This document shows positions 2,368-47,032 of a stretch of 64,000 bases of DNA, in pieces. The notes beneath the pieces were generated by a model. That model saw nothing but the letters and a program-made list of their open reading frames with translations. It had not been told where the DNA came from and ran no database searches. Origin of the DNA: Gramella sp. Hel_I_59 (lineage in GTDB: Bacteria > Bacteroidota > Bacteroidia > Flavobacteriales > Flavobacteriaceae); the NCBI RefSeq assembly GCF_006714895.1, contig NZ_VFME01000001.1, positions 1-64,000 on the forward strand, written 5' to 3'. The position numbers and the translations under genes were made by a program. Every line of letters begins with the position of its first letter. Positions within the stretch are counted from its first letter, which is position 1.

Positions 2368-4466
2368 TAGAATTATTACAGTCTCCAGATAAAAACAGGG
2401 TCATTGCAGATGGGAATGATACCGAGATATTATTGCAAGCGCGACAGGATCCAGATTATTTTGTGCGCGTAAAAGTCTTTATAAACGATGCAGCAGAGCC
2501 GTTCCTGGAACAAGGTTGGAGTAAAGATGAAAATGGTTTTTGCGAATTCAATTTAAAACATCTGTACCATTCTTATTTTATGAATGATACCGAGTGTACC
2601 TATACCACTGGATTCCATTCTAAAGAAGGTCTATTCAAGAAAGTCCAGGTAGTGGCAGAAGAGTACCAGATAGGAGCTTTGGTTCCAGTCGCTAGTCTTG
2701 AACTACCGCTATTCTATATTTTGAAAAATCACAGACCGGTACAGTTTAATGATGAATTGGAACTTCAGTTTCTTGGGCTTCCGCAGGAAAATATTAGCGT
2801 AGATAGAAATACCGGTTTTATTTTTCCCTTATACCTGCGCACCAATGAGCTATTAACGGTTTCTGTACGCAATGAACTCAATGAAGAAATTTATACCGAA
2901 GCCCTGGAAAACTTCCCGCTACAGCTCACGCAGTACGAAATCAATTTTCAAGATATAAACATCGCAGGTCTGGAATTTATATACGTAAGATTCAGTACTT
3001 CTGCAGGTGCCATCCAGAAGAAACTGGTATTTACAGATAAGTCATTATACCCTCCAAAAACTATCTTCTATCTTAATAATTATGGTTTTTACCTTTCAGC
3101 ATGCCTGTTTGGTCGCAAGGAAGATATCTCTACACTGTCTCCAAAATCGTATATGCAAAAAGATGGTACCAGGGTAACGTATGATGTAGAAGATACCAAA
3201 GAACTGGAGTTGTATTCTGGCTATGGCTATAAATCGGTAACAGCACTAATTCATGCGATCGCCACGAGCACAGATGTAAGAATGCAACTGGAAAATAGCT
3301 GGGAACGCGTGGAGAGTACCACCAAGAAAGTAATTCACCAGGTAGACAACCAATATGTATATGGAGACGCTTTAAGGTTCGACAGGGTAAATATTCCAAG
3401 TTTCACCAACAGGAATACGTATGCGATGGTACCGGAAATAATAGATATTGTAGCTACAGGCGACGAGAACGAATCTATAGAAATTAGCAAGGCAGCGTTT
3501 TTAACGGCCTACACCGCTATTCAACCGGCAACTGTCCTGCAAATTAGGGAAGTACCGGTAAATGGAAAAATAAGTTTTGTAGACGGTGCCGGCATTAAAG
3601 AACTATCAGATCTAGTGGCGAATAATCCGGATATTTTGCCATATAGTATTCCGCTATCAGATTTTGTGAAGTTTATCTACGAACCAGACCAGAGAAAAGA
3701 TGGGCTTCCACTCGACGAGATCGATTTTAAAATGGGAACAGAAGTAATATTGAGTAATACGGCTACCATTAACTATAACGTAAATGATATTCCAGATACA
3801 GATCTCCCTCCAGAAATTGTAGTAAACACGATCAAATACATTGCCCTGGACAATTCTAATAATGGTACCGGGCAGATAGACGCGACAGTAAATGTAGCTG
3901 AAGGTCACACAGCTACAATACTTTGGGAAGTTTTGGGAGGTGCGCCAATAACTTTTAATGATTCCAGCCTGGAAGACCCAACGCTGAGTTTAAGCAATGC
4001 CCAGGCAGATACTACGTACCAGGTTAAAATTACAGCGACAGACAACGTAAACGGTTTATCCAGTAGCAAAACGGTAAATGTCAATACAAGTTCTTTCCAG
4101 GTAAAAGTGGAGAAAATCAACTATCCCGAACAATCACAAAGTGAACAGGTTGATTTTAAATTTACAGGAGGGCAGCCCGGCGGACAGATAACATTTAAAT
4201 TCACGGTACTCATGTACATGATAGTTTTTGGAGGTGCCAGATACGTATTGTATAAATATGGGTTGCCAGATGAAGCCATAAAATATACGGGTTCTGAGGA
4301 TATTACTATAGACCTGGATGGGAATGGTGAATACTTACTACCGTGCCAGATTGTAAATGGTGCATTTTCTGAAGTTTCGGTAGAAGTAGAAATTATCGAT
4401 GCTGTAGACCCTCAAATTATCGATCCCAACCAATTCAAAGTAACCGAAAAATTCTCAGGAGCATAA
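2364..4466 (+). CDS. Putative phage tail structural protein with an Ig/PKD-like segment
   Basis: An intact 700-residue protein without signal peptide or membrane segment. It starts in a 4-base overlap with the tape-measure gene and ends directly before the next gene, so the three form one operon. Residues about 1-470 are beta-rich with no motif I recognise. Residues about 475-570 look like an Ig/PKD-type sandwich (alternating hydrophobics, an Asp/Asn-rich loop, a VKITATDN-type strand). By position after the tape measure it would be a distal-tail or tail-tip component, where such domains often help bind the host surface. The product name is inferred from context; I do not recognise the family. 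The frame is intact, unlike its upstream neighbour. Confidence 0.5.
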   Translation: MIELLQSPDKNRVIADGNDTEILLQARQDPDYFVRVKVFINDAAEPFLEQGWSKDENGFCEFNLKHLYHSYFMNDTECTYTTGFHSKEGLFKKVQVVAEEYQIGALVPVASLELPLFYILKNHRPVQFNDELELQFLGLPQENISVDRNTGFIFPLYLRTNELLTVSVRNELNEEIYTEALENFPLQLTQYEINFQDINIAGLEFIYVRFSTSAGAIQKKLVFTDKSLYPPKTIFYLNNYGFYLSACLFGRKEDISTLSPKSYMQKDGTRVTYDVEDTKELELYSGYGYKSVTALIHAIATSTDVRMQLENSWERVESTTKKVIHQVDNQYVYGDALRFDRVNIPSFTNRNTYAMVPEIIDIVATGDENESIEISKAAFLTAYTAIQPATVLQIREVPVNGKISFVDGAGIKELSDLVANNPDILPYSIPLSDFVKFIYEPDQRKDGLPLDEIDFKMGTEVILSNTATINYNVNDIPDTDLPPEIVVNTIKYIALDNSNNGTGQIDATVNVAEGHTATILWEVLGGAPITFNDSSLEDPTLSLSNAQADTTYQVKITATDNVNGLSSSKTVNVNTSSFQVKVEKINYPEQSQSEQVDFKFTGGQPGGQITFKFTVLMYMIVFGGARYVLYKYGLPDEAIKYTGSEDITIDLDGNGEYLLPCQIVNGAFSEVSVEVEIIDAVDPQIIDPNQFKVTEKFSGA

Positions 4467-6347
4467 ATGAAGTCATTCAGAATTATTACCAACGGAGTAG
4501 AATTAGATCACGTTCGTGAAGACGCAAAAATTCGCGAAGAAAACAGTTCCTTTTCCGGAGAAATTAAGGTGAAGCATAATACCAGGCCTTTAAGAATTAT
4601 AGAGAATAGCAACACGCTTAAAGCGATGGGTGAGTTCGAAATTCATTCTGCAGGGAAACGAAAATATTTTAGATCATTGGTGGTAATAGGAGCGATTCGT
4701 CAAAACGCTGTAATTACACAACTGGAGAAATTGAATGGATTCAGGAAGTGTGATTTAAAGTTTGGCTCTGAAGTGAATGAGATCATGGATAAACCGATTG
4801 CTTCTTTCTTTCCGAAATTTAGTGTGATTGGTTCACCATTCCCAGAAAATTATAAATCAGAAGCTTCCCAGGAATATGGACATCAGCAAGCCTGGGTCAA
4901 TCATGCAGAATTCATATCTAGAAAAATTTATCCTGAAGTAAAATGGCAACTTCCAGAAATTAGGTATCAGAATAAATTCGGTACAGATCTCAAAAGTGAT
5001 GATCCACATTTTTTCTATCGTGGTCAAATTAACGGGCGGGACCTCGAAGGCTTAACGAAGAATTACCTTGTTTCAAACTCCAAGTATTTTACCGTACACA
5101 ATAACAATGTCATTGCTCCGCATGTATTTTGGCTTGCTCCTATAGAATACGCTTTCGATTCGCTAGGATATAAACTCACCGGTTCGGTTCCGTTTCATCC
5201 ATTCTTCAAAAGGTTGCTAATGGTTCCAGAGAATGACAATATGGTGAAAATTCCTAGGAAGCCACCAGGTGAGCCACTGGACATTACTTCAGTTCCCTGG
5301 GAGCAGGACTTCGTAAATGGAGTGGTAGATGGTATTCCCTACAGAACCTATGTGAAGAAAATAGAATTTACACCTGTAAATGCCGGTGAGCATGTATTGC
5401 GCTACGATATGTTTATCCAGGGAAATAACTTTCATGGAGTACAAATAGAACAGGCTGGGTTTTTAATTGCAAATGATTCTCGACTTTATGGTGGCACCTT
5501 AGAAGGAACTTTAAATTTTAACGTAGAAGAACCTGAACAAGATCAGCCGTTCCCAACATATACCTTCATATACCACAGCTTTGATAAATTCATTCCTGCC
5601 GAATTTGAAATAGGCTGGTACCAGGATCTTAGTGAACTCGATTTCTATGACATGCATCCCACCGTAGATTTCAGCCGGTATATTCCAGATTGGAATGTAG
5701 CAGATTACCTGAATAAATTTGCAACACTGTTCAACCTAAAGATTGATATTGATGATATTGAGAAAAGTATAGCCATTAATTTCAATGAAGAAGATTATTT
5801 AAAACACGGGAAAGTGGTGCCTATATTTAAAAGTCTTTATATAGCCCAACCTAAAAATATAGAAGCTGAAAGTTATTTCCTGAAGTATGCAAATAATACA
5901 GACCTGGGAAAATTCCAGGCTAACCATGAGGATGTAGAAAATGATGAGAACACTCAAAAGATCGAAACCGCATTTAAATATATTCCATGGCGGGTTCGAA
6001 CTTCTGAAATGTCACAGGAGATCGAAGATAGAGATGGTGTAGGATTAGTACTTTACGATCCCGCCTTTCATCCTGGTACCGTAATTAGTTTTGAAGGTAC
6101 CAATTTAAGTATACCTGGAGAAGGAGGAATCTTTGAAAGCTTCCACAAGCGATGGATATTTTTTAAGCTGAACGCCGCAAATATCACCTTGAAAGGACCC
6201 TTCTCTAAAACCGAATTATACCAGATATCGAAATATAAAAAGATCATGGTAGACGGGCAGCTCTACCTGGTAAAAGCGATTGATTATTCAGAAAATAGCC
6301 TTTCCCTTTTTGAAACTGAGCTTGAAGTTGCTTCTGTGAGTTATTAG
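4467..6347 (+). CDS. Putative phage tail/baseplate protein
   Basis: An intact 626-residue protein whose ATG follows the previous stop with no gap (TAA-ATG). It has no signal peptide or transmembrane segment. It is rich in aromatic residues and mixed alpha/beta in character. As the last large gene of the tail operon it could be a baseplate hub or tail-fibre attachment protein. No catalytic motif, collagen-like repeat or lytic domain is visible. The family is not recognised; the call comes only from the neighbourhood. It faces the minus-strand integrase operon across a short gap holding an inverted repeat. Confidence 0.45.
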   Translation: MKSFRIITNGVELDHVREDAKIREENSSFSGEIKVKHNTRPLRIIENSNTLKAMGEFEIHSAGKRKYFRSLVVIGAIRQNAVITQLEKLNGFRKCDLKFGSEVNEIMDKPIASFFPKFSVIGSPFPENYKSEASQEYGHQQAWVNHAEFISRKIYPEVKWQLPEIRYQNKFGTDLKSDDPHFFYRGQINGRDLEGLTKNYLVSNSKYFTVHNNNVIAPHVFWLAPIEYAFDSLGYKLTGSVPFHPFFKRLLMVPENDNMVKIPRKPPGEPLDITSVPWEQDFVNGVVDGIPYRTYVKKIEFTPVNAGEHVLRYDMFIQGNNFHGVQIEQAGFLIANDSRLYGGTLEGTLNFNVEEPEQDQPFPTYTFIYHSFDKFIPAEFEIGWYQDLSELDFYDMHPTVDFSRYIPDWNVADYLNKFATLFNLKIDIDDIEKSIAINFNEEDYLKHGKVVPIFKSLYIAQPKNIEAESYFLKYANNTDLGKFQANHEDVENDENTQKIETAFKYIPWRVRTSEMSQEIEDRDGVGLVLYDPAFHPGTVISFEGTNLSIPGEGGIFESFHKRWIFFKLNAANITLKGPFSKTELYQISKYKKIMVDGQLYLVKAIDYSENSLSLFETELEVASVSY

Positions 6348-30050: not shown

Positions 30051-32735
30051 CTAGTTCTGTTCGATATCGTCTATATAGAATTCACCAGCGGTAAATTCAG
30101 CAAAGGCAAGAAAGAGTGATACCTCATCAAATTGTCCATTAGGTACTGCAGGCTGCCCATTATTCGCATCGTCATTCGTGACAAAACTGTTTCTTGCATC
30201 ATTAGCGAAGTCAAAAGTTAGTTCTTCCCAACCTGTTCCGCCGTGACTAACCTCAACCTCTACAGCTCTTTCTCCATTAACACCAGTCTCTAATTTGAAA
30301 ACTACCTGGTAAGCAATTTCAGAATAAACTTTCATGGTGATCGTTTTATTTGATCCTGAAAAGTCTATTGGTTCGTCCAATATGAAAGTAAGTGCCTCAT
30401 ATTGACCACCGCCATTGGTAACTTTTCCAACTGCATTTGCTGTGGCATTGATTCCTGATTGCTCAGGATTTGTAACTATCTCGAAAGGAACACTGTTAGC
30501 ACCAAGAGTGAAATCATCGCTTTCAAAGTCAAGTGGCAGAGCGAAATCTCCACTAGCTGAACCACCATCTGTACCACCTCCTGTAGAAGAATTCAAAGTA
30601 ATATTATCGAAATATGTAACAGATTCAGATGTTCTCACTTCAAAGTCTGGGAATACAACTAGTCCTGTAATGTCAGTATTGTTAGGATCTCCAATAACTC
30701 CAGAAAAGTCGAAAGTCAATTCTTCCCATTCATTCGTTTTAGTATTCGCTACCTTGATTTCTCCTGTGGAACCTCCGGCTCCATTCTCGAACTTAATTCC
30801 TACATCACTAATCTTACTCTTCCAAACCCATACTTTCACGATACTATTAGAAGCATCTAATGTAAATGGCGTATTGAGCGTGGTAACAGTACCAGCATAA
30901 GATTCTCCGTCAGGTCGTGCAGTAAATTTAGCAACGCTCATAGAAGTATTTCCAGTCATGTCAGGATTTGTGATAATTTCCAAAGCAGGATTGTCGCCGT
31001 TTTCGAAAACTCTCCAGCTTGAAGAAAGTCCACCATTCGCGGCAGATTCGAAATCTACCGGGAAGCTTGTTGTTGTAGCAGCTGGTTCTCCACCATCTGT
31101 ACCTTCACCTTGCATGATATCATCAAAATAATAAACTGAACCATCACCTGCTGGTTGTGCAGCATCATCAAACTCAGGGAAGATTACGAACTTATCGTAA
31201 CCATCAGCCGGATCTACTAATGCTGAGAAATCATAAGTTAAAGTAACCCATTGGTTTGCTTCAGTAATTGTTTCATCAATGAAAACATTTGCAGGGTTTT
31301 CTTCCCCTTCTTTTTCCAACTGGAATCTTACATTAATTCCTGCTTTTGGAGACCACATTTTAAAACTGAATGTAGTTCCCTGTGATAGATCTATATTTTG
31401 AGGGAAGATTTGGAAGATCCCTGAATACCATGGTGAACCTTCACCTTTTACAAATTCGTATACGGTAGCAGAATTATTTCCATTCATATCTGGATTAGCA
31501 ATTGGAGTTCCAGTAACATTTCCACCTTCGAATACACCTGATAGTGTTGTGTTATCTTCAAAACCTATTGGAAGATTTTCAGCAGCCATTGGAGCTCCGG
31601 TAACATCGCCATCACGCATTAGATCATCAACATAGAAAGTTCCAGCTGTAGAACCACCCTGGTCAAGAAATAAAGATATTCTATCAAACTGACCATCTGG
31701 AACAATCGCAGCTCCACCAGTGTCATTATTATCTATATAACTTGTAGTGGCATCTGTAGCGAAATTGAAGGTTAAGGTTTCCCATCCTGTACCACCGTGC
31801 TGTGCATCAACTTCGTTTGATCGCTCATCGTTCACACCAGTTTCTAATTTAAGAAGTACTGGAAAAGCTACTTCAGAATAAATTTTTACTGTAAGTGTTT
31901 TATTATCACCAGAAAAGTCCACGGCTTCACCAAGATTGAAGGTCACACCTTCAAATTGAGCTCCTGCCTTTGTGATAGCACCAACCATAGATTCTGTATC
32001 GTTAGTTCCAGATAATTGGGGATTTGCAACGATCTCGAAAGCAGTCTCTGCAGCTCCAAATGGAGTTACTGCATATCCAACAAGGGGATCATCAAATGTT
32101 ACTGGTAATTTTAAAGGATCTGAAGCCTCAGGTACTTCAACTTCTACAGTTTCTTCTGCAGTCGCTGCACCAGCTCCTTTAGCTACCACTCTAATTGTAT
32201 AAGTTCCAGCCGCAGCATAAGTATAAGAGATAGTTTCTCCTGGCATTAACTGAGTTGGCTCCTCATCGTCTGTATCTCCAAAATACACATCAAAACTTGC
32301 TGCATTGTCTGCCGTTGCGCTTACCTCTACCATTGCCGGGTTTGCGGGTAACTGGTTTACATTCACTTCCAGATTCTCCGGAGCTTTAAATGCGATAGTT
32401 AGACGTTGATTAAACTCGCTGGTTAGACCAGTAGAGCCTACAGCAACAACTTTTACTAGGTAAACACCCTCATCGTACACAGTAGTTGCAGTTTCTCCGT
32501 TGGCAAGTTCAGCGGTTTCTCCATTTCCAAAGTCAACCTGAAAAGTCTGAGCACCCACTCCACTAGGAGTAATAGTTACCGTACCGGTATCATCCTGGCT
32601 AATATCAAAATCTGCTGTTACATCTGTTGGAGCAGAGATTTCCTGGAACGCGTAGTTCGTAATTTCATCATCTTCACATCCTGTAAAAAGCAGAAGCGAG
32701 ATGGTAAGCATTGCTAAAATTCTGAATATTTTCAT
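30051..32735 (-). CDS. Surface glycan-binding lipoprotein with PKD and four CBM-like modules
   Basis: 894 residues. The lipobox LLLFTGC (Cys20) is followed by EDDE, suggesting surface display. Two PKD-like domains (about 35-115 and 118-202) precede four beta-sandwich modules starting near 209, 385, 555 and 733. The first and last modules are close copies (FSGDNKTLTVKIYSE, ETGVN-ER, HGGTGWE, DGQFD-ISLFL). The two central ones form a second pair (FDFS, FPEFD/FPDFE, YFDDI/YFDNI). No catalytic glutamate motif is present. As the third gene after SusC and SusD it is most likely the glycan-binding protein of the laminarin system. Confidence 0.85.
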   Translation of the reverse strand: MKIFRILAMLTISLLLFTGCEDDEITNYAFQEISAPTDVTADFDISQDDTGTVTITPSGVGAQTFQVDFGNGETAELANGETATTVYDEGVYLVKVVAVGSTGLTSEFNQRLTIAFKAPENLEVNVNQLPANPAMVEVSATADNAASFDVYFGDTDDEEPTQLMPGETISYTYAAAGTYTIRVVAKGAGAATAEETVEVEVPEASDPLKLPVTFDDPLVGYAVTPFGAAETAFEIVANPQLSGTNDTESMVGAITKAGAQFEGVTFNLGEAVDFSGDNKTLTVKIYSEVAFPVLLKLETGVNDERSNEVDAQHGGTGWETLTFNFATDATTSYIDNNDTGGAAIVPDGQFDRISLFLDQGGSTAGTFYVDDLMRDGDVTGAPMAAENLPIGFEDNTTLSGVFEGGNVTGTPIANPDMNGNNSATVYEFVKGEGSPWYSGIFQIFPQNIDLSQGTTFSFKMWSPKAGINVRFQLEKEGEENPANVFIDETITEANQWVTLTYDFSALVDPADGYDKFVIFPEFDDAAQPAGDGSVYYFDDIMQGEGTDGGEPAATTTSFPVDFESAANGGLSSSWRVFENGDNPALEIITNPDMTGNTSMSVAKFTARPDGESYAGTVTTLNTPFTLDASNSIVKVWVWKSKISDVGIKFENGAGGSTGEIKVANTKTNEWEELTFDFSGVIGDPNNTDITGLVVFPDFEVRTSESVTYFDNITLNSSTGGGTDGGSASGDFALPLDFESDDFTLGANSVPFEIVTNPEQSGINATANAVGKVTNGGGQYEALTFILDEPIDFSGSNKTITMKVYSEIAYQVVFKLETGVNGERAVEVEVSHGGTGWEELTFDFANDARNSFVTNDDANNGQPAVPNGQFDEVSLFLAFAEFTAGEFYIDDIEQN

Positions 32736-40486: not shown

Positions 40487-43400
40487 ATGAGCATAATTAC
40501 TAAACTAACCCTACAAACACAAGTCGGCAGCAAAACTTTATTTCTTGGAATGCTATTAGCATTTCTGGGAAATCTAACCGGATATTCTCAAACGAATTCT
40601 AAAGAAGTCGTGCATTCAGTTTATGTCACTTCCAATACGGGACTTCGTTCTAACGAAGATAATAAGCAGATACTCGATAAAATCGTAAAATCTTCCCAGG
40701 CGAATGAATCTAACAGCCTGGTAATGGTTGGTAATATTGTACCAGAAGACGGGTTTCCAGATAAAGATAATGGACGTTCTAAGGTTGAAGAAGATCTTAA
40801 GAAAAATCTACTTGATGAGATCAAGGATTTCAACGGAAAAATAATTTACACTCCTGGATATAATGAGTGGCAGGAAGACGCCCCGGATAATATAGATGAT
40901 CTGGAATCTTTTTTACAGGATACCCTGGAATCTGATTTCTGGCCCAATGATGGTTGCCCTATTGAGAGCGAAAGTCTTAGTGATGACGTGCAGCTTATAA
41001 TGATAGATTCTCAATGGTATATTGAAAACTGGGATGATCACCCATATATCAACAATAAATGTGAGATCAAAACAAGGCTTCAGTTTCTGGATGAATTCAA
41101 TGATGAATTAGAAGATAGCCAGAGAAAAACAGTTCTTGTTGCGGTTCATCATCCTGTGATGACACAAACCAAAATCGGATTTCTAGAGAAGATGTTGGGC
41201 CATGGGACTCAAACGAGTCGTAACCCGCAATTAAAAGAATTGATGGGTAGCCTTGAAGCACTTGCCAGACAATATAATGATGTGATTTTCTTATCTGGAA
41301 AAGATAAAAACCTTCAATTCGTACAGGATGATGGGATCGAACAAATCATTACTGGTGTCACTAAAGAAATTGCGAAGGCAAGACCAGATAAGGAAGAAGG
41401 CGACTTCGTGAGTTATGAACTTGGTTATGCCAGGGTCAATATCTACAAGAATGGATCTTCAAACGTAGAATATTTCTCAGTATCCCCAGAAGGTGAAAAG
41501 CTGATCTATAGCTACGAAATAGCCAGAGAACGACCAACTTTAGACGAAGTAGAATGGCCAGAGACCAAGTTAGGTAAAACTACTACTACCTCTGTTTACA
41601 CTGCAGAGGAAACCGATAAAGACGGACTTTACAAAGCACTTTGGGGAGAACACTACAGATCTCTTTACAGCAAAAAATTTGAATTCCCTGTTCTTTATTT
41701 AGATACCATTCCTGGGAATATGAAAGTATTGGGTGCCGGAGGTGGACATCAATCAAGATCGCTCGGATTTATAGATGACGATGGTCACGAATATACCATG
41801 AGAGCTTTGAAAAAAAGTGCGCTTCAGTTTTTACAAACTACCGTGATCACAAATCACTATGTAGAAGATTATTTAGAAAACACGGTAGCTGAGCGATATG
41901 TACAGGATTTTTACACAACAGCTTTTCCTTACGGTACTTTCCCGGCAGGAAAATTCATGGACGAACTAAATATCTTCCATCCAAATTCTGAACTTTACTA
42001 TGTTCCGAAGCAGGAAGCACTGGGAGTTTATAATGAGGAATATGGTGACGAACTATATATGTTCGAAGCACATATTGGAGGAGAAAATAAAGATCTTCCA
42101 ATATTTGATGGAGCTGAGGATATCCTGAACTCATCTGATCTACTTCTGGAAATGCAGGAATCAAAAGAGGCTTATGTAGATGAGGATATGTACATTAGAG
42201 CAAGGCTTCTCGATATGTTCCTGGGTGACTGGGACAGACATGAAGGACAATACGAATGGGCAGAATTCGAGGATGAAGAAGGTAAGAAAAGATACGTACC
42301 TATCGCAAAAGACCGTGATCAGGTATTTTCAAAAACAGACGGTTTTATTCTTTCTTTACTTCGTGTAGGTTTCCCTCAAATTAGAGCGATGGAACCTTTT
42401 ACAGAAACTGTGAAAAGACCAAAATGGTTTAACCACGCCGGATACCCGTTAGATAAAGCAGTAATTAGAGAGAATAACTGGAATACCTGGAAGGAACAGG
42501 CTGAATATCTTCAGAATACACTTACAGACAAAGTTATTCAGGAAGCTTTCGATGTATTACCTTCAGATATAGCAGATGATGAATATGTGATGGATATCAA
42601 AAGCACTCTTGAGGTAAGAAGAGGTAATATGATGGAGATCGCACGTGAGTACTACGATTACCTGGTGAAATTCGATATCTTCCTTGGAACCGAAGATGAT
42701 GATGCTTTCCTTATTACTCGTAAACCTGACGGAATTACGCAAATTGAGCTAACCAATGAAGATGGTGAAGTAGTTGCTCAAAAAACTTACGACAGTGATG
42801 AAACCAAAGAAGTTTGGATCTATGGACTTGACGGCGATGATGAATTTAAGATCGTAGGCGAAGGTTCTTCACTGGTAAAACTGAAAGTTATTGGTGGAGA
42901 AGAAAATGATATCTACGACTTTCAGAATACAAAAAAGGCGAAACTTTACGATTACAAGAGCAAGGATAACACGATAAAAACTTCAGGCGCAAATAAAATG
43001 CTTGTAGATTCTTATGATATTAATAATTACGATCCTAAAAAGAGAAAAAGTAACCAATTTACTTTTTTCCCCAGTGCCGACTTTAATTCAGATCAGGGAT
43101 TCAGCTTAGGGGTTAAAAACACCTTTACGACCTATGGTCTGGTTCGAAATCCATTTACATCTCAACACAACCTTTCTGCAAACTATTATTTTGCAACCCA
43201 GGGATTTGATGTTGGTTACTATGGTGAATTCGCAAACGTGTTCTACAAATGGAATTTTGGAGTAGATGCTTATTATTCGAGTCCGAATTTCGTGATTAAC
43301 TATTTTGGAACAGGAAACGATACAGAGTACGATGACGACGATGTTTCCAGAGATTTCAACCGGGTGAGAATTGAACAATGGAGACTTGCACCTTCAATTA

Positions 43401-44101
43401 TTTATAGAAAGAACAATAATGTATTCTTCAGTATTAAGCCTATGATAGAATCCAAGCAGGTTTCTTACGATACAAATAGAATTATAGCTGAAACTTTTGA
43501 TCAGGATAATGATGTTTTTGAAGAACAACTTTATGCTGGTGCAGAGGTGAACTACAATTATTATAATAAGGATAGAGCAGCATTTCCATCAAGAGGGATC
43601 GAAGTAGATCTAACCGCGGGTTATAAAAGTAATATTGATGAGTTTGATAACAAATTCGCTTACGTGAGACCAATGCTATCTTTGAATTACCCATTACACG
43701 AAAGTGGTTTCGCGGCTATTGCAACAAAAATAGGTGGGGAAGCGATCCTGGGAGATGAGTACGAATTCTATCATGCGGCTACACTTGGCGGTGGTAATAG
43801 AAATACGCTTAGAGGATACCGTAATGAACGTTTTAATGGTAAATATGCATTCTATCAGAATATTGATATTCGAAGTGGAATCGCACAATTCAGAACTAAT
43901 TTTATCCCGATTCGTATGGGAGCAAGCATTGGATACGATTACGGTAGAGTTTGGGTAGATGAAGATGATAGTAACGAATGGCATTCTAACGTGGGTGGAT
44001 CGATTTTCATCAACGCTTTCAAAGCCTTTACAGGAAACATTGGATACTATGTTGGAGACGAGGGAGGTCGTTTGAACTTCACCGTGAACTTTGACTTCTA
44101 G
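40487..44101 (+). CDS. Outer-membrane protein: degenerate metallophosphoesterase, kinase-like middle, Omp85-type barrel
   Basis: 1204 residues with a signal peptide (about 15-35). Residues 42-340 align by pattern with the metallophosphoesterase domain of Bacteroidota proteins, but the metal ligands are changed. TSNTG stands where GDTG is usual, VGNIVP for GDNIYP, PGYNEW for PGNHDW and SGKDKN for SGHEHN; only the HH pair (His221-His222) remains. Residues about 380-690 contain DWDRHEGQ (Asp581, Asp583) and KDRDQ (Asp609, Asp611), a spacing reminiscent of FAM20/HipA-like kinases. The last 350 residues form a surface-antigen (Omp85-like) barrel with GGGNRNTLRGY and a terminal Phe. It is divergent from the PUL regulator. 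Activity is unknown. Confidence 0.8.
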   Translation: MSIITKLTLQTQVGSKTLFLGMLLAFLGNLTGYSQTNSKEVVHSVYVTSNTGLRSNEDNKQILDKIVKSSQANESNSLVMVGNIVPEDGFPDKDNGRSKVEEDLKKNLLDEIKDFNGKIIYTPGYNEWQEDAPDNIDDLESFLQDTLESDFWPNDGCPIESESLSDDVQLIMIDSQWYIENWDDHPYINNKCEIKTRLQFLDEFNDELEDSQRKTVLVAVHHPVMTQTKIGFLEKMLGHGTQTSRNPQLKELMGSLEALARQYNDVIFLSGKDKNLQFVQDDGIEQIITGVTKEIAKARPDKEEGDFVSYELGYARVNIYKNGSSNVEYFSVSPEGEKLIYSYEIARERPTLDEVEWPETKLGKTTTTSVYTAEETDKDGLYKALWGEHYRSLYSKKFEFPVLYLDTIPGNMKVLGAGGGHQSRSLGFIDDDGHEYTMRALKKSALQFLQTTVITNHYVEDYLENTVAERYVQDFYTTAFPYGTFPAGKFMDELNIFHPNSELYYVPKQEALGVYNEEYGDELYMFEAHIGGENKDLPIFDGAEDILNSSDLLLEMQESKEAYVDEDMYIRARLLDMFLGDWDRHEGQYEWAEFEDEEGKKRYVPIAKDRDQVFSKTDGFILSLLRVGFPQIRAMEPFTETVKRPKWFNHAGYPLDKAVIRENNWNTWKEQAEYLQNTLTDKVIQEAFDVLPSDIADDEYVMDIKSTLEVRRGNMMEIAREYYDYLVKFDIFLGTEDDDAFLITRKPDGITQIELTNEDGEVVAQKTYDSDETKEVWIYGLDGDDEFKIVGEGSSLVKLKVIGGEENDIYDFQNTKKAKLYDYKSKDNTIKTSGANKMLVDSYDINNYDPKKRKSNQFTFFPSADFNSDQGFSLGVKNTFTTYGLVRNPFTSQHNLSANYYFATQGFDVGYYGEFANVFYKWNFGVDAYYSSPNFVINYFGTGNDTEYDDDDVSRDFNRVRIEQWRLAPSIIYRKNNNVFFSIKPMIESKQVSYDTNRIIAETFDQDNDVFEEQLYAGAEVNYNYYNKDRAAFPSRGIEVDLTAGYKSNIDEFDNKFAYVRPMLSLNYPLHESGFAAIATKIGGEAILGDEYEFYHAATLGGGNRNTLRGYRNERFNGKYAFYQNIDIRSGIAQFRTNFIPIRMGASIGYDYGRVWVDEDDSNEWHSNVGGSIFINAFKAFTGNIGYYVGDEGGRLNFTVNFDF

Positions 44102-45679: not shown

Positions 45680-46663
45680 ATGAAAAAATTAGTTTTAGCA
45701 GTTTTCTGTTTATCGATATTCAGTACTCACGCACAGAATATTGGTCACGAAAAAAGTGCTTTTGCACATACATTTTCAATTGTTGCCAGAGATACTGTCA
45801 CCGGTGAAATGGCTGTAGGCGTTCAAAGTCACTGGTTTTCGGTGGGTTCTATAGTTTCCTGGGGCAAATCTGGTGTTGGAGTGGTTGCCACTCAATCCTT
45901 TGTAAATCCGGCCTACGGTCCTCAGGGACTTGAATTAATGGAAAACGGAATGCCAGCAGATATAGCGCTGGCTAAAATGGTAGATGAAGATGAAGGCCAT
46001 GCTTTCCGTCAGGTTGCATTTCTGGATGTAAACGGTAACGTTTCTGCCTATACTGGTGATAAATGCGTTCAGGCTGCGGAAGACATACAGGGTAATAATT
46101 TTTCTGTACAGGCAAATATGATGTTAAATGAGAATGTAGTTCCTGCCATGGCGAATGCCTATGCTACGAATTCAGATCTTCCTTTAGCTGAAAGAGTGGT
46201 TGCTGTGATGCTGGCCGCACAGGAAGCCGGTGGTGATATACGAGGAAAACAATCTGCTGCTCTTATTGTCGTAGGTCCTGAAAAAACCGAAAAAAGCTGG
46301 GAAGATAAAAAGGTGGATCTTAGAGTGGATGATCACGAAAATCCAATCAAGGAACTTGGAAGATTACTGAAGGTGCATCGTGCTTACGAACATATGAATA
46401 AAGGAGACCTTGCTGTAGAAGCCAACGATATGGAAAAAGCACTTGAGGAATATGGTGCTGCAGAAAAAATGTTTCCTGAAAACCTGGAAATGAAATACTG
46501 GAAAGCTGTAGCTCTTGCCAATAGTGGGAGAATGGATGAAGCTAGACCAATTTTCAAAAAAGTTTTTGCTGCAGATGAAAACTGGAAAGAAATGACCACA
46601 AGGTTGCCTGCATCAGGACTACTGAATATTTCAGAAGAAGAATTAGAGACCCTTACTAAATAA
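45680..46663 (+). CDS. DUF1028 family secreted protein with TPR-like C-terminus
   Basis: 327 residues with a signal peptide (MKKLVLAVFCLSIFSTHAQ). The DUF1028 core (about 25-230) shows HTFSIVARD, GEMAVGVQSHWF, VVATQSFVNPAYG and GGDIRGKQSAAL, characteristic of this family of Ntn-hydrolase-like fold. Residues 235-327 form helical TPR-like repeats (AYEHMNKGDLAVEANDMEKA, MKYWKAVALANSGRMDEA), a fusion that suggests protein binding. The family has no established reaction; amidase or peptidase activity is a guess from the fold. Followed 9 bases later by a small lipoprotein, probably co-transcribed. Confidence 0.9.
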   Translation: MKKLVLAVFCLSIFSTHAQNIGHEKSAFAHTFSIVARDTVTGEMAVGVQSHWFSVGSIVSWGKSGVGVVATQSFVNPAYGPQGLELMENGMPADIALAKMVDEDEGHAFRQVAFLDVNGNVSAYTGDKCVQAAEDIQGNNFSVQANMMLNENVVPAMANAYATNSDLPLAERVVAVMLAAQEAGGDIRGKQSAALIVVGPEKTEKSWEDKKVDLRVDDHENPIKELGRLLKVHRAYEHMNKGDLAVEANDMEKALEEYGAAEKMFPENLEMKYWKAVALANSGRMDEARPIFKKVFAADENWKEMTTRLPASGLLNISEEELETLTK

Positions 46664-46672
46664 GATAGCCAT

Positions 46673-47032
46673 ATGATTAAATTGATGAAAATTAGTTTTT
46701 TAAGCCTTCTGTTTATAGCATTCGTTGCTTGTGAAGAAACTAAAAAAGAAGAAGAGAAAACTTCCGAAGAAAAAGAAACCGTTAGCACTGCCAATTCGAT
46801 GAAAACGAATATGGAAGCAGATAGTGAGCTAAAATATAATCCTGCTCATGGCGTAGAAGGTCATCGTTGTGAACTACCGGTAGGTGCTCCTCTTACAAAT
46901 GAGGGAAATACTCCGGCTCAACCTATGACCACAAGTCCTGTTAGAATGCAGAGCGCCACTCCAACGATTAATCCTCCACACGGGCAACCTGGGCATGACT
47001 GTTCAGTAGCAGTGGGTGCTGAGCTCAATTAG
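46673..47032 (+). CDS. Small lipoprotein with a duplicated NPxHG-GHxC-VGA motif
   Basis: 119 residues. The signal sequence ends AFVAC (Cys20 as lipid anchor) followed by an extremely charged Glu/Lys stretch. Two copies of one motif follow: NPAHGVEGHRCELPVGAPL near residue 60 and NPPHGQPGHDCSVAVGAEL at the C-terminus. They share NP-HG--GH-C---VGA. The His, His and Cys could bind a metal or haem in each copy. I recall similar motifs in small Bacteroidota proteins of unknown function. It follows DUF1028 by 9 bases. An ATG four codons in is an alternative start. Confidence 0.7.
   Translation: MIKLMKISFLSLLFIAFVACEETKKEEEKTSEEKETVSTANSMKTNMEADSELKYNPAHGVEGHRCELPVGAPLTNEGNTPAQPMTTSPVRMQSATPTINPPHGQPGHDCSVAVGAELN

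What the first reader, a model, noticed from the sequence alone, without database searches (positions are those of the whole stretch)
40487..44101. Pseudo-phosphoesterase joined to a kinase-like region and an Omp85-type barrel
The N-terminal domain keeps the order of metallophosphoesterase motifs but nearly all metal ligands are replaced (N50, the V81-G82 pair, Y125/N126, K272/K274). The middle has DWDRHEGQ and, 26 residues on, KDRDQ, like catalytic and metal Asp motifs of FAM20/HipA-type kinases. The C-terminus is an outer-membrane barrel. A surface- or periplasm-facing kinase on a barrel with a dead phosphatase as a sensor would be a new kind of envelope protein. It is divergent from a laminarin PUL.
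Basis: partly seen in the sequence, partly recalled or inferred. Interest (0 to 1): 0.72.

Follow-up and report, generated by a model that had tools for sequence, protein, structure and literature searches.

The report
Barrel-anchored kinase-like protein with dead phosphatase
A bacterium related to the marine genus Christiangramia makes a large outer-membrane barrel protein that carries, apparently on its inner side, a decayed phosphatase and a well-kept domain folded like a protein kinase, which is unexpected because the space under the outer membrane is not thought to hold ATP.

The parts
40487..44101 (+). whole gene, 1204 aa: pseudo-PAP + kinase-fold + beta linker + Omp85 barrel
   Evidence: ORF; 1011 homologues at E<=1e-3, best 120 listed
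40487..40594 (+). N-terminal signal peptide, about aa 1-36, no lipobox seen
   Evidence: read by eye from the sequence; relative L034 starts alike
40598..41542 (+). pseudo-purple-acid-phosphatase domain (aa 38-352)
40634..40636 (+). N50 in place of the first metal Asp
40730..40735 (+). G82-N83, GD motif with Asp replaced by Asn
40859..40864 (+). Y125-N126 in place of Asn-His of GNHD/E
41147..41152 (+). H221-H222, the one retained ligand motif (HHP)
41300..41308 (+). K272-x-K274 in place of H-x-H of GHxH
41579..42676 (+). kinase-fold domain (aa 365-730 as folded; best matches span about aa 398-724)
41738..41746 (+). glycine-rich loop G418-G420 between beta1 and beta2
   Evidence: 81 of 81; strands
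41801..41815 (+). R439 (at the beta3-Lys position) to K443
   Evidence: 81 of 81 each; strand
42224..42250 (+). catalytic-loop motif GDWDRHEGQ (aa 580-588), D583 proposed catalytic base, Q588 at the Asn(+5) position
42311..42319 (+). DRD (aa 609-611), proposed metal-binding Asp motif
42671..43024 (+). nearly all-beta linker (aa 729-846; one short helix at its end) with two RTX-like motifs (GLDGDDEF, GGEENDIY) read by eye; not a POTRA-like helix pattern
   Evidence: AF2 secondary structure; G803, G804, D808 81 of 81
43049..44092 (+). 16-strand Omp85 barrel (aa 855-1202)
   Evidence: NCBIfam Omp85_fam 8.2e-14, under its cut-off
43808..43822 (+). LRGYR (aa 1108-1112) in the loop between strands 11 and 12, like the Omp85 L6 VRGF/Y motif
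   Evidence: name and place of the motif in Omp85 recalled

Best explanation
[quoted passage not shown] SHOWN by prediction or comparison: the soluble part is a PAP-fold domain plus an atypical kinase-fold domain of the CotH/PI4KII/HipA type; the PAP ligand set is gone here; the kinase-type residues are kept as a set. INFERRED: the ancestral form (like paralogue L002) is a phosphatase-kinase pair that adds and removes phosphate on one envelope substrate (protein, glycan or lipid); in the window clade the phosphatase half lost catalysis and stays as a docking or sensing scaffold, while the kinase half still binds a nucleotide or other phosphoryl donor, with D583 as base and D609/D611 as metal ligands. 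The barrel anchors it at the outer membrane and may present membrane-embedded substrate, as proposed for PlpD. The phosphate donor in the periplasm is the least certain step.
For: Folds. Intact-phosphatase paralogue and kinase-only paralogue in the same genome. Catalytic set kept in 81 of 81 (56 intact-PAP, 25 scored degenerate, of which L062 only for unread bases). Phosphatase state changes about three times while the kinase motif stays. PAP and kinase-like domain as separate adjacent genes in L132. In five distant proteins without the usual motif the GGG loop is lost in all five, at least one Asp of DRD in all five and the catalytic Asp in four, much as expected of one functional site. Profile comparison: a clean 38-row profile against CotH gives E 4.5e-5 to 3.7e-3 over five template choices (probability 9 to 69%), HipA 0.0068 to 0.052, APH 0.15 to 0.53, unrelated PAP-part control 0.036; the CotH alignment pairs GDWD with GHWD and DRD with YDLD. 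CtkA is the top non-barrel PDB sequence match, E 0.081. Cys157 and Cys192 both present in 76 of 81 suggests a disulfide and so an extracytoplasmic site. Enzyme-bearing Omp85 precedent in the periplasm: PlpD, passages read.
Against: No assay. The beta3 position is Arg in 81 of 81 where kinases usually have Lys; the Asn at +5 is Gln. ATP is not expected in the periplasm (recalled). Sequence links to known kinases are weak: an 82-row profile gives CotH only 0.0027 to 0.0086 and HipA 0.03 to 0.11 against 0.054 for the unrelated control; HipA_C in 4 of 49 rows (best 0.034) is no better than unrelated families in the same list, such as EnY2 0.0017 in 4 rows and DUF1598 0.008 in 6. No CotH-model match anywhere in the genome. 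One distant protein (L131) keeps the catalytic Asp while losing the rest. Some distant relatives look like pseudokinases, so a non-catalytic role is possible.
Confidence: 0.58

Rival explanations
1. The kinase-fold domain is a non-catalytic binding module: it senses a ligand (nucleotide, phosphorylated lipid or glycan) and the whole soluble part is a receptor or scaffold on the barrel.
For: Arg at the beta3 position and Gln at +5; a periplasmic location without known ATP (recalled); distant relatives with lost catalytic residues exist (5 proteins); the neighbouring domain is already dead.
Against: A full catalytic and metal Asp set kept in 81 of 81, and mostly lost together with the glycine loop where lost, is more than binding usually needs.
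Confidence: 0.2
2. The domain has a kinase fold but another chemistry, such as AMPylation or glutamylation, as in SelO and SidJ (recalled).
For: Unusual beta3 residue and location; a kinase fold with other chemistry is known (Black et al. 2019, seen only as a reference entry).
Against: No specific sequence or structural sign of it was looked for or seen here.
Confidence: 0.1
3. It is mainly an outer-membrane assembly or translocation factor, BamA- or TamA-like, with the soluble domains standing in for POTRAs.
For: Omp85-type barrel with an L6-like motif; Heinz and Lithgow call this the most conservative hypothesis for such subfamilies.
Against: The genome has POTRA-bearing Omp85 genes of its own, one with 5 POTRA matches at C1:2994491-2997019; the kinase-like domain also exists without a barrel.
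Confidence: 0.12
4. The soluble part is exported through the barrel and works on the cell surface (type Vd-like).
For: This was first proposed for PlpD (described).
Against: Later PlpD work placed the enzyme domain in the periplasm; the predicted domains are large and compact.
Confidence: 0.06

Closest known systems
'Metallo' subfamily of Omp85 proteins (Heinz and Lithgow 2014, PMC4104836; abstract and section 10 read, other passages searched)
   Same: N-terminal PF00149 domain on an Omp85 barrel, listed among non-POTRA architectures; paralogue L002 has PF00149
   Different: They call the domain a metalloprotease; 'kinase' has 0 occurrences in the main text; the window protein has no detectable PF00149 match and a dead site. 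Their sequence lists were not seen, so that L002 is in their set is inferred
CotH atypical kinases (PF08757; PDB 5jda, 5jd9)
   Different: No match to the Pfam model in the window protein or its genome; Arg for Lys; part of a barrel protein
HipA/CtkA and PI4KII kinases
   Different: No family-model match over a cut-off; no barrel
Purple acid phosphatases; GAP50 (PDB 3tgh) as a PAP-fold anchor protein
   Different: Metal ligands replaced in the window clade; PAPs are active enzymes
PlpD, patatin-Omp85 (PMC11116518, passages read)
   Same: Enzyme domain N-terminal to an Omp85 barrel; there shown to lie in the periplasm
   Different: Phospholipase with a POTRA, not kinase or phosphatase

Membership tests
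Omp85 superfamily | 16-strand C-terminal barrel | tested here: met
Omp85 superfamily | VRGF/Y-like Arg motif in L6 and partner Asp in strand 13 (recalled) | tested here: met
   R1109 in 78 of 81 and D1151 in 77 of 81, 3 rows gapped at each; positions
Omp85 superfamily | match to a family sequence model over its cut-off | tested here: not met
   NCBIfam Omp85_fam 51.9 bits against 200; no Pfam match; PF01103 finds three other genes of the genome, not this one. 2 of the first 120 relatives carry PF01103 among P0109, P0011, P0114 and others listed
Omp85 superfamily | at least one POTRA domain (in the PlpD paper's wording; Heinz and Lithgow define by the barrel) | tested here: not met
   No Pfam POTRA match; the stretch before the barrel is almost all beta
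'Metallo' Omp85 subfamily | N-terminal PF00149 domain with an Omp85 barrel | tested here: inconclusive
   PF00149 in paralogue L002 (2.4e-10); window protein has no PF00149 match but is 36% identical to L002 over 1188 columns and has the PAP fold
Active purple acid phosphatase/metallophosphoesterase | metal-ligand set | tested here: not met
   N50, N83, Y125, N126, K272, K274 in place of ligands
Protein-kinase-like superfamily | bilobal kinase fold | tested here: met
   (predicted model)
Protein-kinase-like superfamily | catalytic-loop Asp and metal-binding Asp | tested here: met
   D583 and D609/D611, 81 of 81; aligned with the CotH Asp motifs by profile
Protein-kinase-like superfamily | beta3 lysine | tested here: not met
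   R439 in 81 of 81; invariant K443 lies 4 residues on
Protein-kinase-like superfamily | phosphotransfer activity | not testable with these tools
   needs an assay
CotH family PF08757 | match to the family model over its cut-off | tested here: not met
   no match for the window protein; none in its genome; not among the 25 of 30 families shown for the 49 rows of A3; 11.0 bits against 23.8 in distant L123
HipA_C family PF07804 | match to the family model over its cut-off | tested here: not met
   none for the window segment; 4 of 49 rows at best E 0.034; in the genome only another gene at C1:1592957-1593655 matches
Fam20 kinases | specific relationship to Fam20 | tested here: inconclusive
   a Fam20 complex (5yh2) is Foldseek rank 17, E 6.5e-3; no Fam20 profile was compared

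The most novel reading that the evidence does not exclude
Bacteroidota carry an outer-membrane phosphorylation device: a kinase and a phosphatase on one Omp85 barrel that reversibly modify an envelope substrate in the periplasm, using a phosphoryl donor available there, with a kinase-only signalling branch (the window clade) in which the phosphatase became a sensor.
Probability: 0.3. Interest if true: 0.87.

Novelty: new variant of a known kind. Interest (0 to 1): 0.66.

Why it matters
Phosphorylation outside the cytoplasm of Gram-negative bacteria is hard to explain because no ATP is expected there. A widespread family (112 of 296 genomes of the phylum sampled) with a well-kept kinase-type site tied to the outer membrane makes the question directly testable, including what donor is used. 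It also corrects the reading of an Omp85 subfamily and shows how a phosphatase half can decay while its partner half is kept.

Tried and rejected
Sequence search of the PDB with single proteins gave no useful match. Pfam gave nothing for the window protein; NCBIfam the barrel and two chance-level matches. Considered and rejected: an intact phosphatase (ligands gone); a POTRA before the barrel; BamA itself (POTRA-bearing Omp85 genes exist elsewhere in the genome); a functional tie to the laminarin-type locus as the main reading (2 of 18 relatives; two of the 18, L037 and L050, are cut inside the gene and L036, L044 and L047 hold only a short upstream stretch, so 2 is a lower bound); the Riemerella metallophosphoesterase as a characterised relative (its paper is not held; a review lists that protein as a type IX secretion effector; no sequence was compared). 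Literature searches for this architecture; no listed title or abstract start described a kinase domain on an Omp85 barrel. The lists are capped and most subscription papers are not held, so this is no proof of absence.

The distant rows of A3 and A4 were hand-picked and chosen for having the motif.

Full report
CHECK OF THE OBSERVATION. The ORF at 40487-44101 (+) encodes 1204 aa. In 120 aligned rows (the query and 119 of the 120 listed homologues; P0047 was dropped for its length) D583, R584, H585, Q588, D609 and D611 are invariant, and several replaced phosphatase positions are themselves conserved: N50 117, G82 120, N83 119, N126 113 of 120. So both halves of the observation describe a family, not one odd sequence. 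The family is large: 1011 homologues at E<=1e-3, the best 120 listed; most of those with a source name are named 'metallophosphatase'.

PARALOGUES. The genome holds two other matches. L002 is a 1238-aa protein, 36% identical over 1188 columns, with a lipobox-like N-terminus (by eye), an intact phosphatase motif set (GDGG, GDNIY, GNHDW, HHP, GHEH) and a Pfam Metallophos match at 2.4e-10, over the cut-off. L003 is about 426 aa and matches only aa 383-726 (E 4.9e-42, 28%), so the middle region is an independent domain. Neither Pfam nor NCBIfam assigns it a kinase family.

KINASE-TYPE RESIDUES. In 81 rows (80 loci from named genomes plus the query and L002, less L037 without phosphatase data) R439, K443, D474, R573, D576, G580, W582, D583, R584, H585, Q588, D609, D611, G619, D656 and R711 are each 81 of 81; the loop G418-G420 is 81 of 81. 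Profile comparison by hhalign, several templates each: the 38-row profile A4 gives CotH E 4.5e-5 to 3.7e-3 (probability 9 to 69%), HipA 0.0068 to 0.052, APH 0.15 to 0.53, and 0.036 for the unrelated phosphatase part of the same proteins; an 82-row profile without distant members gives CotH 0.0027 to 0.0086, HipA 0.03 to 0.11, APH 0.093 to 0.71, control 0.054. So CotH stands out in both, modestly, and HipA hardly. The CotH alignment pairs GDWD with GHWD and DRD with YDLD. A profile of 49 rows has CtkA as its top non-barrel PDB match, E 0.081. 4 of 49 rows weakly match HipA_C (best 0.034), but unrelated families score as well or better in the same list (EnY2 0.0017, DUF1598 0.008), so I give it no weight. 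One of 9 distant proteins weakly matches CotH in the motif region (0.29). Against full competence: R439 occupies the beta3-lysine position in every row, and Gln replaces the Asn at +5. CotH is reported to keep the equivalents of PKA D166, N171 and D184 (PMC12189002, passage).

DECAY OF THE PHOSPHATASE. In 321 aligned proteins 175 keep the full set of nine compared letters. On a tree of 82 rows built from the kinase and barrel part only, the 18 scored rows of the 19-row window clade (support 99) are degenerate; L050 was scored on six of nine letters. A separate clade of five (Marixanthomonas, UBA3356 and Aequorivita, support 100) and Hanstruepera L085 (partial loss) are degenerate too; 56 rows are intact. 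The tool counts 4 changes; L062 was scored degenerate only because of unread bases, which leaves about three. The tree alone does not give direction, but regain of a lost metal site is unlikely. The kinase motif stayed intact in all 81.

DISTANT RELATIVES. A scan of 296 genomes of the window's phylum (Bacteroidota, judged by its named relatives) with a middle-domain profile found 112 with a match at E<=1e-6. Of 140 matches, 82 lie in open frames of 1100 aa or more (PAP-kinase-barrel size), 42 in 700-1099 (kinase-barrel size), 15 in 400-699 and one in 259 (length is only a proxy for architecture). Of 20 distant loci picked by hand, 16 have at least one ORF with the DWDRH motif. The other four loci and one further ORF in L122 lack it: in these five proteins the GGG loop is gone in all, at least one Asp of DRD in all, and the catalytic Asp in four, L131 keeping it. 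L132 shows the PAP (Metallophos 1.4e-6) and the kinase-like gene side by side as separate genes, which supports a functional pairing.

SITE OF ACTION. A signal peptide (by eye), the Omp85 topology and the Cys157/Cys192 pair, both present in 76 of 81, point to the periplasm; that the two cysteines touch was not measured. PlpD, an enzyme-bearing Omp85 protein, has its enzyme domain in the periplasm, and its deletion changes membrane lipids (PMC11116518, passages). ATP is not expected there (recalled), so the donor is an open question.

CONTEXT. The gene is divergent from a Y_Y_Y/LuxR-type regulator next to SusC-like, SusD-like, PKD, GH16 and GH3 genes. Among 18 window-type loci the regulator with SusC and SusD recurs in L034 (Christiangramia sabulilitoris) and L043 (Salinimicrobium sediminis) only; five of the 18 hold little or no upstream sequence. 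The 62 other loci have a conserved neighbour family in 58, directly upstream and divergent in 34; by eye it resembles the HD+PycTM gene beside L002.

WHAT IS KNOWN. Heinz and Lithgow 2014 (abstract and section 10 read) list a 'Metallo' Omp85 subfamily with N-terminal PF00149, which they call a metalloprotease; PF00149 is the calcineurin-like phosphoesterase. 'Kinase' and 'phosph' have no occurrence in the main text. In ten library searches no listed title or abstract start described a kinase-fold domain on an Omp85 barrel.

VERDICT. Anatomy: near certain as prediction. Pseudo-phosphatase: near certain. Kinase fold: very likely. Catalysis: likely but untested. Sensor role and PUL link: speculative.

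Noticed in passing
L002:44-1276 (-) and loci L048-L113 without the window-type ones: The gene beside L002 has HD and PycTM (Pycsar effector) domains. A neighbour family that resembles it by eye is found in 58 of 62 L002-type loci, directly upstream and divergent in 34. A link between such a protein and an outer-membrane phosphatase-kinase is unexplained.
   Followed up: partly
flanks of L048-L113 (L002-type loci): A protein family of about 800 aa (GAF-like by eye, not scanned) lies near the gene in 53 of 62 loci, and a lipoprotein-like family of about 300 aa in 39 of 62.
   Followed up: no
L122:452-3112 and 3123-5687: Two adjacent barrel genes: one with the kinase-like motif and one with the motif lost, suggesting a kinase and pseudokinase pair.
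   Followed up: partly
L132:1-2529 (-): PAP-like gene and kinase-like gene, both with lipoprotein-like starts by eye, as separate adjacent genes: the split form of the fusion.
   Followed up: partly
window 46673-47032: Small secreted or lipoprotein-like ORF (119 aa) with two copies of a motif like NPxHGxxGHxCxxxVGAxL, read by eye.
   Followed up: no
window 45680-46663: DUF1028 protein with C-terminal TPR repeats.
   Followed up: no
window 30054-32735: Large protein in the PUL-like locus in which Pfam finds only PKD domains.
   Followed up: no
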